Source: Acrocarpospora corrugata (lineage in GTDB: Bacteria; Actinomycetota; Actinomycetes; Streptosporangiales; Streptosporangiaceae). Taken from it: a stretch of 64,000 nt of DNA. The DNA lies in assembly GCF_009687845.1 (NCBI RefSeq), contig NZ_BLAD01000061.1, positions 1 to 64,000 of the forward strand, written 5' to 3'. The notes under the pieces are model-generated. The model saw only the letters and a list, made by a program, of their open reading frames with translations, made no database searches and was not told the DNA's origin. Positions within the stretch are counted from its first letter, which is position 1, and every line of letters begins with the position of its first letter. The translations under genes and the position numbers were made by a program. Positions 60,031 through 62,509 of this stretch are shown here, one piece after another.

Positions 60031-60081
60031 CTTCAACTTGGCATCAAGCGGCCCCCAAGACCCGCCTGCGACGATCCCGCG

Positions 60082-62259
60082 ATGAGCATAAAAGTCCCCA
60101 TCCGGCTGCAGAGCGGGCTGGCCGAGTGCGGCGCCGCCTGCCTGGCCATGGTGCTGAGCCACCACGGGCGGCACAGCAGCGTCCGCGAGGTCAGCGAACA
60201 ATGCGGGGTCGGCAGGGACGGTCTGTCCGCGCTGGCCATCGTCCGTGCCGCCCGCGAGCACGGCCTGCGCGCCGACGCGTTCTCCGTCAAGGAGCTCGCG
60301 GGGGCTCCGCTGCCGGCGATCGCGCACTGGCAGTTCAACCACTTCGTCGTCGTCGAGCGGTACGGCTCGCGCGGCGTTGACGTGGTCGACCCGGCGGCGG
60401 GGCGGCGCAGGCTGACGCACGCGGAGTTCGAGGCGGGTTTCACCGGAGTGCTGCTGACCTTCACTCCCGGTGCCGAGTTCCAGCCTCGGCGGAGGGCCCG
60501 CAGGGGTTGGCTGCGGGCCCTCGCCGGGACCGCGCTCCTGCGGCAGCGGGCGTTGCTGGCCCCGATTCTGATGGCGTCGCTGCTGTTGCAGGGCGTCGGG
60601 CTGGTGGTGCAGAGCTTCGCCCAGGTGCTGATCGACACCGTGCTGCCCACGCGGGACGGCGGGCTGCTCGGCATGCTGGGGATCGGGCTGGCGGTGGCCG
60701 GATTGCTCCACATGGCGCTCACCTATCTGCGTTCTGCCACCCTGCTCAGGCTGCGGTTGCGGGTTGATCGGCTGCTGACCACGCAGGTGGTCGGGCATCT
60801 GTTCAGCCTCCCCTACCGGTACTTCCTGCATCGGGGTTCCGGTGATCTCGCGCAGCGCAGCGCGAGCGTGAGCCGGTTGCGGCAGTTGTTGTCCGGGCCG
60901 ATCACCACGGCGCTGCTCGACGGGCCGCTGGCCGTGGGGTATCTGACGATCGTGCTGGTCAAAGCGCCGCCGCTGGGTTTCTGCCTGCTTGGGCTCGCCT
61001 TCGTTCAGGGCGCGTTGCTGCTGCTGACCAGGCGGCGGCGGTCGGATCTGAACCAGGTTTCGCTCAACGCCCAGGTGCAGACGCAGGGTCAGCTGATCGA
61101 GGCGATCAAGGGGGTGGAGACGCTGAAGGCCAGCGGCGCAGAAAGTGCGGCGCTCGGTCGCTGGTCACGGCTGTTCAACGAGCAGCTCGCCGCCGATCGG
61201 CGGGTGGGCGCGACGGAGAACGTGGTCACGTCCGTGCTGGAGAGCATGCGGCTGGTGGCGCCGGCGATCCTGCTGTGGGTCGGTGGCTGGCTGGTGCTCG
61301 GCGGGCGGGCGGGGTTGGGGGCGACCCTGACGCTCTGTGCGCTTTCTGCGGCTGCGCTCGGGCCGATCACCTCGTTGCTGGCGAGTCTGCGGACGTTGCA
61401 GGAGGCGGCCGTACACGTCGAACGGCTGGCGGACATCCTGGGGTCCGAACCTGAGGCGCAGGGCGAGATCCAGGTGCGTGACCTGCGGGGACGGATCCAG
61501 CTCGCGGAGGTGTCCTACCGTCATGATCCGCGTGCGCCGTGGACGTTGCGGCAGATCTCATTGCATATCCGGCCAGGTGAGAAGGTCGCGCTGGTGGGCC
61601 GTACCGGGTCGGGGAAGAGTACTCTCGCCCGGCTCATGCTCGGGCTGCACGAGCCCACGCTCGGCAGCGTCAGCTACGACCGGGTGCCGCTCGGCGCGCT
61701 GCACCGGGGCACGCTGCGCCACCACTTCGGCGTCGTCACGCAGGAACCGCACCTGTTCAGCGGGACCATCCGGGAGAACATCGCGCTGACCCATCCCGAG
61801 GCGTCCCCGGCCGAGATCGTGGAGGCCGCGCGGCTGGCCTGCGTGCACGAGGACATCGAGGCCATGCCGATGGGCTACGACACGACGCTGTCGGAGGGCA
61901 TGGGCCTGTCCGGCGGGCAGCGGCAGCGGCTGGCGCTCGCCCGCGCCCTGCTCGGGCGGCCCAGAGTCCTGCTGCTCGACGAGGCGACCAGCCACCTGGA
62001 CACCGTCACCGAGACGCAGATCGAACAGCATTTGTCGCTGCTCTCCCAGACCCGGATCGTCATCGCCCACCGCCTCAGCACGGTACGGGACGCCGACCAG
62101 ATCTTCGTGATCGAGGACGGCCGGATCGCCGAGCACGGGACTCATGCGGATCTGATGGCACGCGGCGGACCCTACGCGGCCCTGGTCGCCGGCCAAGAGG
62201 GCGAGGATTCGGCGTCCAGTGCTCTTCAAGAGTTCCCCAAGTCCCCCCTGTCACATTGA
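60082..62259 (+). CDS. C39-peptidase ABC transporter (PCAT) for a double-glycine peptide
   Basis: 725 residues. The N-terminal C39 peptidase (about 1-135) has Gln10 and Cys16 (LQSGLAECGAACLAM), His87 (WQFNHFVVVERYG) and Asp103 (VVDPAAG), a full catalytic set. Six membrane helices span about 150-430. The ATPase (about 480-715) has GRTGSGKST, LSGGQRQRLALARAL, LLLDEATSHLD and IVIAHRLS. Transporters of this type cut the leader after a Gly-Gly motif and export the core. The 43-codon gene 35 bases downstream encodes exactly such a leader, so it is the expected substrate. Confidence 0.92.
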   Translation: MSIKVPIRLQSGLAECGAACLAMVLSHHGRHSSVREVSEQCGVGRDGLSALAIVRAAREHGLRADAFSVKELAGAPLPAIAHWQFNHFVVVERYGSRGVDVVDPAAGRRRLTHAEFEAGFTGVLLTFTPGAEFQPRRRARRGWLRALAGTALLRQRALLAPILMASLLLQGVGLVVQSFAQVLIDTVLPTRDGGLLGMLGIGLAVAGLLHMALTYLRSATLLRLRLRVDRLLTTQVVGHLFSLPYRYFLHRGSGDLAQRSASVSRLRQLLSGPITTALLDGPLAVGYLTIVLVKAPPLGFCLLGLAFVQGALLLLTRRRRSDLNQVSLNAQVQTQGQLIEAIKGVETLKASGAESAALGRWSRLFNEQLAADRRVGATENVVTSVLESMRLVAPAILLWVGGWLVLGGRAGLGATLTLCALSAAALGPITSLLASLRTLQEAAVHVERLADILGSEPEAQGEIQVRDLRGRIQLAEVSYRHDPRAPWTLRQISLHIRPGEKVALVGRTGSGKSTLARLMLGLHEPTLGSVSYDRVPLGALHRGTLRHHFGVVTQEPHLFSGTIRENIALTHPEASPAEIVEAARLACVHEDIEAMPMGYDTTLSEGMGLSGGQRQRLALARALLGRPRVLLLDEATSHLDTVTETQIEQHLSLLSQTRIVIAHRLSTVRDADQIFVIEDGRIAEHGTHADLMARGGPYAALVAGQEGEDSASSALQEFPKSPLSH

Positions 62260-62294
62260 GAGTGCACAAACCAACCAGGAAAGGTTCCAGGAAA

Positions 62295-62426
62295 ATGAAC
62301 AGCTTCGAGACCACCGCTCGCACCATCGACGACAGCGAGCTCGCCGCCGTGACCGGCGGAATGCCCCCGAACTACGACTGGATGAACTACGACTGGCGCG
62401 ACGCCGTCATCTCCGCTCTGCCGTAA
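62295..62426 (+). CDS. Double-glycine leader peptide precursor
   Basis: 43 residues. ATG 62295 follows an AGGAAA ribosome site. The leader is helical and acidic (DDSELAAVTGG at its end) with Gly21-Gly22, the classic C39 cleavage point, and hydrophobic residues at L16 and V19, as recognised by PCAT peptidases. The predicted core is residues 23-43: MPPNYDWMNYDWR followed by DAVISALP. It contains a tandem NYDW repeat (26-29 and 31-34), three Asp and one Arg, one Ser, and no Cys or Thr. That excludes lanthionine rings and disulfides. The net charge of about -2 differs from typical cationic bacteriocins, so a signal peptide or an unusual modified peptide is possible. Confidence 0.75.
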   Translation: MNSFETTARTIDDSELAAVTGGMPPNYDWMNYDWRDAVISALP

Positions 62427-62442
62427 ACAAGCCTGACCCACA

Positions 62443-62468
62443 GGGGTCGTCCACCCACGGACGACCCC
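62443..62468. terminator. Terminator after the peptide gene
   Basis: GGGGTCGTCC and GGACGACCCC form a perfect 10-base stem with a 6-base loop, 16 bases after the peptide stop. Confidence 0.75.
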
Positions 62469-62477
62469 CGCCCGGGA

Positions 62478-62509
62478 AAACGGGGTGACCACACCAGGTC
62501 ACCCCGTTT
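62478..62509. terminator. Second, bidirectional terminator hairpin
   Basis: AAACGGGGTGACC and GGTCACCCCGTTT form a perfect 13-base stem with a 6-base loop, with A- and T-tracts on either side. It overlaps the TetR stop codon, so it can end transcription from both sides. Confidence 0.75.

What the first reader, a model, noticed from the sequence alone, without database searches (positions are those of the whole stretch)
60082..62509. Minimal C39 transporter / double-glycine peptide system with a repeated NYDW core
Seen: an intact C39-peptidase ABC transporter, then after 35 bp a 43-codon gene whose leader ends AAVTGG, then strong terminators. The 21-residue core has a tandem NYDW repeat, no Cys or Thr, a single Ser and net acidic charge. 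Known: C39 PCATs cut after Gly-Gly. Inference: this is a new class of small exported peptide, perhaps a signal or a Tyr/Trp-modified RiPP. No LanM, YcaO, radical SAM or P450 gene is nearby; the aldo-keto reductase upstream is the only co-directional enzyme.
Basis: partly seen in the sequence, partly recalled or inferred. Interest (0 to 1): 0.85.

Follow-up and report, generated by a model that had tools for sequence, protein, structure and literature searches.

The report
SARP-boxed double-glycine peptide family (NYDW)
A soil actinomycete carries a tiny exporter-plus-peptide unit that recurs, with a nearly unchanged peptide, in related bacteria; its nearest relatives sit beside genes for peptide-modifying enzymes while this branch does without, so it looks like a stripped-down secreted peptide whose job is still unknown.

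Summary
A C39-peptidase ABC transporter (PCAT, 60082-62259) is followed after 35 nt by a 43-codon gene (62295-62426) with a GG leader and the core MPPNYDWMNYDWRDAVISALP. It is not chance: I count 31 copies in 16 genomes of four genera of one actinomycete family, core residues 26-43 nearly invariant. Nineteen copies lie beside an intact PCAT of one clade, 11 elsewhere in the genome. Flanking genes differ between genera; the aldo-keto reductase is not conserved.

(1) The PCAT clade is sister to PCATs of graspetide-like loci: 33 of 36 sister loci fetched carry an ATP-grasp maturase-like gene, 0 of 12 NYDW PCAT loci do. (2) All 11 intact NYDW PCATs have a SARP-type promoter box (CAAG-N7-CAAG-N7-TGnnAnnnT), and 29 of 31 peptide copies have it with at most one mismatch, unlinked copies included; a looser form precedes most sister precursors.

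Best explanation: a SARP-type activator (unidentified) turns on scattered precursor genes and one exporter, which cuts after Gly-Gly and releases a probably unmodified 21-mer. Role, activator and absence of modification are not shown. New peptide family within a known kind of system.

The parts
60045..60075 (+). SARP-type promoter box of the transporter gene, CAAG-N7-CAAG-N7-TGCGACGAT; ends 6 nt before the start codon, so the mRNA may be leaderless (inference)
   Evidence: 2 matches in the window, 0 in 100 shuffles; exact box 6-7 nt before the start of 11 of 11 intact NYDW PCATs
60082..62259 (+). C39-peptidase ABC transporter (PCAT), 725 aa; Q10, C16, H87, D103 assigned as C39 active-site residues from recalled motifs; Walker A, ABC signature and Walker B present
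62227..62257 (+). SARP-type promoter box of the peptide gene, overlapping the 3' end of the transporter gene
62295..62360 (+). leader peptide, 22 codons, ending AAVTGG
62361..62423 (+). core peptide, 21 codons, MPPNYDWMNYDWRDAVISALP (stop 62424-62426)
62443..62468 (+). GC-rich RNA hairpin after the peptide gene
62478..62509 (+). terminator-like hairpin, convergent with and overlapping the end (62499) of a TetR-type gene on the other strand

Best explanation
This is a minimal secreted-peptide module. A SARP-type activator (not identified) binds CAAG direct repeats in front of the transporter gene and of the precursor genes, wherever in the genome these lie. The PCAT recognises the leader, cuts after Gly-Gly and exports a 21-residue acidic, aromatic peptide. 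It shares ancestry with exporters of graspetide-like loci, and a similar promoter plan, but works without a linked ATP-grasp enzyme, so the released peptide is most likely unmodified and acts outside the cell. Among roles I rank an extracellular signal or effector (about 0.4) above an antimicrobial peptide (about 0.3). Shown by sequence: conservation, pairing, promoter boxes, absence of linked enzymes. Inferred: activation by a SARP, cleavage, export, lack of modification, role.
For: 31 copies in 16 genomes, core 26-43 nearly invariant. 19 copies beside an intact PCAT of one clade (clade support SH-aLRT 99-100). Among 22 loci only PCAT, peptide and one alpha/beta-hydrolase family recur across genera. 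Exact box before 11 of 11 intact PCATs; before peptides exact in 26 of 30 copies and within 1 mismatch in 28 of 30, 34-42 nt upstream, the 31st copy with 1 mismatch. In 19 genomes 51 sites against 3 for the reversed pattern; in the 16 bearers 37 of 49 sites are NYDW promoters. ATP-grasp in 33 of 36 sister PCAT contexts, 0 of 12 NYDW PCAT loci. Looser box (without TG) upstream of 30 sister precursors: 15 exact, 26 within 1 mismatch.
Against: No transcript, peptide or binding data, and no SARP gene identified. Outside the bearers the box is hardly above control: over 297 genomes 115 sites against 46 for the reversed pattern, of which the 14 bearers included take 48 against 2 (my count of the tables), so many sites elsewhere are chance. 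It also precedes DUF5685 and other genes, so the regulon is not specific to the peptide. Two copies (G162, G083) have a box with 2 mismatches. G154 and G239 have the peptide but no PCAT of this clade genome-wide (best 58% and 56%); G299 and G310 have none in the fetched stretch and were not scanned further. In-trans modification by other enzyme families is not excluded. The sister loci are called graspetide-like on matches mostly below curated cut-offs. The tree does not decide loss or gain of the ATP-grasp.
Confidence: 0.55

Rival explanations
1. RiPP modified in trans: an unlinked enzyme crosslinks or otherwise alters the invariant Tyr/Trp/Asp residues (for example W-x-N and W-R-D, which resemble cyclophane motifs, by recall) before export.
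For: Core strongly conserved; unlinked copies show that parts of the system need not be clustered; relatives are RiPP-like loci.
Against: No SPASM domain at E<=1e-4 in 5 of 16 bearers including the window's genome, though 11 of 16 have one; no TIGR04187 at E<=1e-30 in 6 of 16 including the window's, though 10 of 16 have one; the co-regulated DUF5685 gene is missing in 3 of 16. Graspetide ester/amide chemistry needs Ser/Thr/Lys (recall); 18 of 21 cores have none. P450, MNIO, YcaO and others were not searched genome-wide.
Confidence: 0.25
2. Antimicrobial peptide (unmodified, class II-like bacteriocin) exported by its own PCAT.
For: GG leader, dedicated exporter, two or three tandem copies in one genus, weak matches to bacteriocin leader models, all below cut-off.
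Against: No immunity-like gene recurs beside it across genera, though ORFs under 60 aa were not compared; core hardly varies between genera apart from residues 23-25 (pN/pS 1.03 against 0.52 for 26-43 and 0.76 for the leader); net negative charge.
Confidence: 0.3
3. Secreted signal peptide sensed by an unlinked receptor.
For: Conserved core, activator-type promoter on most copies, scattered satellites, no recurring immunity-like gene.
Against: No receptor or kinase recurs nearby across genera; known double-glycine signals usually sit beside a two-component system (recall).
Confidence: 0.35
4. The promoter box is a chance or unrelated motif and the peptide is merely co-transcribed with the PCAT.
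For: The box is a consensus match only, and outside the bearers it is found little more often than its reversed control.
Against: 2 matches in the window against 0 in 100 shuffles; 51 against 3 reversed in 19 genomes; present before unlinked copies.
Confidence: 0.04

Closest known systems
Graspetide-type loci of actinobacteria with a C39 PCAT (ATP-grasp TIGR04187, precursor model TIGR04497; graspetides surveyed in PMC8939145, passages seen)
   Same: Sister PCATs (42-62% identity), GG leader, related CAAG-repeat box before most precursors scored
   Different: No ATP-grasp gene in any of 12 NYDW PCAT loci; 18 of 21 cores lack Ser, Thr and Lys; precursor lies after the PCAT and has unlinked satellites
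ComA/ComC-type and class II bacteriocin PCAT systems (by sequence, chains with solved structure include ComA 8hf4 and bacteriocin transporter 4ry2, PCAT1 by recall)
   Same: C39 peptidase, transmembrane and ATPase domains in one chain; small precursor with GG leader; no linked modifying enzyme
   Different: No recurring receptor or immunity gene beside it; family seen only in one actinomycete family in the genomes searched; different core
SARP-controlled promoters (PimR heptamer CGGCAAG with 4-nt spacers, same heptamer for SanG and PolR; PMC5930380 and PMC10972967, passages seen)
   Same: CAAG-containing direct repeats with an 11-bp period ahead of the -10
   Different: Here the boxes lie before a PCAT and scattered small peptide genes; the SARP is unknown

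Membership tests
C39 PCAT with double-glycine precursor | Transporter with N-terminal C39 peptidase, TMD and ATPase domains | tested here: met
   three Pfam models above cut-off
C39 PCAT with double-glycine precursor | Small precursor with GG leader, conserved next to the transporter | tested here: met
   GG invariant in the 21 rows of A1; 19 of 31 copies beside an intact PCAT of the clade
C39 PCAT with double-glycine precursor | Cleavage after Gly-Gly and export | not testable with these tools
   needs peptide detection
Graspetide | ATP-grasp ligase in the locus | tested here: not met
   0 of 12 NYDW PCAT loci; TIGR04187 absent at E<=1e-30 from 6 of 16 bearers. G310 has one about 2.8 kb from its unlinked peptide, with a GG precursor of its own upstream
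Graspetide | Core with Ser/Thr/Lys donors and Asp/Glu acceptors (recall) | tested here: not met
   18 of 21 cores in A1 have no Ser, Thr or Lys; 3, the window's included, have one Ser
Class II bacteriocin | Linked immunity gene | tested here: inconclusive
   across genera only PCAT, peptide and an alpha/beta-hydrolase family some kb away recur; ORFs under 60 aa not compared
Class II bacteriocin | Killing activity | not testable with these tools
   -
SARP-controlled promoter | Direct repeats with 11-bp period ahead of the -10 | tested here: met
   literature passages
SARP-controlled promoter | Bound and activated by a SARP | not testable with these tools
   regulator not identified
SPASM radical-SAM RiPP (e.g. 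triceptide) | SPASM enzyme in the genome | tested here: not met
   none at E<=1e-4 in the window's genome and 4 more of 16; the other 11 have at least one, at places other than the peptide loci listed

The most novel reading that the evidence does not exclude
NYDW peptides are a secreted peptide hormone of these actinomycetes: a SARP-type activator controls one shared exporter and a set of scattered, nearly identical precursors, a signalling branch that arose beside graspetides by doing without the modifying enzyme.
Probability: 0.15. Interest if true: 0.82.

Novelty: new variant of a known kind. Interest (0 to 1): 0.57.

Why it matters
It defines a conserved peptide family that no Pfam or NCBIfam model captures above its cut-off, shows an apparently enzyme-less branch beside a RiPP-type exporter lineage, and gives a promoter box that ties unlinked small-peptide genes to one exporter. 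The box is a practical handle: it led here to GG-peptide genes in other genera of the family.

Tried and rejected
Aldo-keto reductase as partner: no homologue at 1e-5 in 21 other loci. Graspetide membership: rejected. SPASM radical SAM in trans for the window's genome: none found. DUF5685 as obligatory partner: present in 13 of 16 bearers and also in G027, which lacks the peptide at the thresholds used. Mobile origin: no hit in the plasmid collection; in viral contigs 24 stretches matched a pattern and none was confirmed; the phage collection was not searched. Nesting of NYDW PCATs inside the graspetide-linked PCATs: not decided (AU p 0.616). Structure of the precursor: single sequence, mean pLDDT 62, helices 13-19 and 34-40, not used. 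Looser box (no TG): 16 sites in the window's genome against 4 for the reversed control; of these 9 were looked at and, beyond the sites already known, mostly precede secreted or unrelated genes.

Rows dropped: for the PCAT tree 12 of 88 loci had a stop or under 650 aa in the best segment, identical rows were merged to 67 (the window included), and 49 were used. For the sister precursors 37 loci were given: 3 had no ATP-grasp, 4 no precursor by my rule, 30 were scored.

Literature: one search listed 2 papers, one none, one showed 20 of 60, one (NYDW) showed 20 of 32 with unrelated titles, one none, 54 (DUF5685) 1 unrelated, one showed 10 of 17, one listed 5, one listed 3, one (graspetide with SARP) none. 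None listed is on this family by its title. Passages only were seen of PMC8939145, PMC10972967, PMC5930380 and PMC8269224; the last held nothing relevant.

Full report
Observation. The transporter carries Peptidase_C39, ABC_membrane and ABC_tran; by sequence, chains of solved structure that match it over nearly the whole length include ComA (8hf4) and the bacteriocin transporter 4ry2. The 43-codon gene starts 35 nt after the transporter stop and is followed by two strong hairpins. The two best named relatives of the transporter are from Acrocarpospora pleiomorpha and A. catenulata, 85% and 73% identical.

Conservation. The peptide was found in 14 of 297 genomes of the family and, with a profile of 21 peptides (A1), in 18 of 345 of the order; I set aside G139 (a peptide matching TIGR04497) and G201 as weak, leaving 16 genomes. 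In the class it appeared in 5 of 394, all of the same family, the weak G139 among them. The 16 genomes hold 31 copies: 19 beside an intact transporter of the same clade (one of these, A. pleiomorpha, with a broken frame), 1 beside a partial transporter (G065), 11 elsewhere. One genus has two or three tandem copies in each of 7 genomes and, in 6 of the 7, an unlinked divergent copy. Invariant in A1 are M1, F4, GG, Y27, W29, D33-V38, L42 and P43 (M1 partly by my typing). Over 25 distinct coding sequences pN/pS is 0.76 for the leader, 1.03 for residues 23-25 and 0.52 for 26-43; strong codon bias makes these ratios only rough. One copy has a single repeat unit (G310), so the tandem NYDW is not essential. 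Two loci may be decaying: in A. pleiomorpha the frame breaks inside the core, and in G065 the transporter is partial with a stop inside and the usual start codon is not a start, though an upstream start in frame exists.

Neighbours. Clustering the genes (60 aa or more) of 22 loci, only the transporter, the peptide and one alpha/beta-hydrolase family (some kb away, in the window locus and five loci of one genus) recur across genera. The aldo-keto reductase has no homologue in 21 other loci. Ten genes around the window locus gave GH116, NmrA-type, Rrf2, MmyB-type, TetR, zinc dehydrogenase, APH-type, ABM and alpha/beta-hydrolase families, one none; no RiPP enzyme.

Relation to graspetides. The NYDW transporters form one branch (11 rows). 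The nearest other transporters are 42-62% identical. I fetched context for 36 of them, taken from the ranked lists and not at random: 33 have an ATP-grasp gene within the stretch (tblastn with one such protein), against 0 of 12 NYDW transporter loci, 11 intact and 1 partial. The ATP-grasp protein of G139 matches TIGR04187 with E 2e-70 but below its curated cut-off, and three precursors match TIGR04497 below cut-off, so 'graspetide-like' is the safe name. A survey of graspetides lists the C39 peptidase-transporter as a frequent ATP-grasp neighbour (PMC8939145, passages). Two of the three exceptions (G196, G171) are a second enzyme-less pair of transporter and GG peptide with another core; the third (G034) shows no obvious precursor. 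A tree in which all non-NYDW family transporters are one clade is not rejected (AU p 0.616), so loss or gain of the ATP-grasp is undecided. TIGR04187 is absent at E<=1e-30 from 6 of 16 bearers, the window's genome included, and SPASM at E<=1e-4 from 5 of 16, again including it.

Promoter box. Upstream of transporter and peptide genes I noticed CAAG-N7-CAAG-N7-TGnnAnnnT. It occurs twice in the window and in none of 100 shuffles. In 19 genomes it gave 51 sites against 3 for the reversed pattern; in the 16 bearers 37 of 49 sites are NYDW promoters, 9 precede a DUF5685 gene and 3 precede other genes. It lies 6-7 nt before the start of 11 of 11 intact NYDW transporters, which suggests leaderless mRNAs, and 34-42 nt before the peptide starts: exact in 26 of 30 copies, within one mismatch in 28 of 30, the 31st with one mismatch. 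Against a wide regulon: over 297 family genomes there are 115 sites against 46 reversed; the 14 bearers among them take 48 against 2, leaving 67 against 44 elsewhere (my count of the tables; 65 of 297 genomes have any site). Where looked at, other sites precede GG-peptide genes of other genera, DUF5685, polyketide-synthase-like, SARP-like and unrelated genes, most named by eye. Sister precursors have the CAAG repeats with A and T at the -10 positions, mostly without the TG: 15 of 30 exact, 26 of 30 within one mismatch, in 200 bp; random 200-bp windows gave 0.3-0.4% exact and 0.6% within one mismatch, true sites included. One of the 30 (L235) is probably not the real precursor. SARP operators are direct heptamers with an 11-bp period, and PimR, SanG and PolR use CGGCAAG (passages). 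The regulator was not found; near the unlinked G310 copy, with one gene between, lies a BTAD-domain regulator, but other loci were not scanned for such genes apart from the ten window neighbours, which have none.

Mechanism and limits. From this I infer activator-controlled expression of scattered precursors and one exporter, Gly-Gly cleavage and release of a 21-mer. G154 and G239 have only PCATs of 58% identity or less among the matches listed and would need one of these; G299 and G310 were not scanned for PCATs beyond the fetched stretch. Modification by enzymes outside the two families tested is not excluded. Role is the weakest part: conservation and lack of a recurring immunity-like gene lean to a signal or effector; dedicated export and tandem copies also fit an antimicrobial.

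Novelty. No Pfam or NCBIfam model reaches its cut-off for the peptide; PHROGs and PADLOC were not searched. The paper searches named in Tried and rejected listed nothing on it by title; most subscription papers are outside that library.

Noticed in passing
L192 8457-8591 and L236 8132-8266 (G196, G171): A second minimal pair: PCAT plus a GG peptide with core QKVEVSMGLYIDPPGICVSV (QKPEVSMGLYIDPPGICVSV in G171), with no ATP-grasp gene in the fetched stretch.
   Followed up: partly
L268 6243-7322 and counterparts in L270, L272-L277, L279, L280, L304, L307, L311, L313, L322: DUF5685 genes of several genera have the same SARP-type box shortly before their start codon, also in genomes without the NYDW peptide.
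   Followed up: partly
L314, L316-L320: The box also precedes GG precursors whose cores end in VDPPGYCAMD in G044, G133, G087, G112, G058 and G095; in G095 right after a PCAT, in the other five on a contig other than that of the PCAT listed.
   Followed up: partly
L159 1453-1596 (G201): Orphan GG-leader peptide with an aromatic core YYWACYHWEDFVPGAPGY, weakly similar to NYDW (E 0.0035).
   Followed up: no
L377, L385, L389 and L379, L383, L384: Two families of small proteins that look secreted, each with CAAG repeats and a -10 about 6-8 nt before the start codon in two genera, suggesting a wider regulon with leaderless mRNAs.
   Followed up: no
L032 8211-8381 (A. pleiomorpha): The NYDW frame breaks inside the core in this assembly; error or natural decay not decided.
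   Followed up: no
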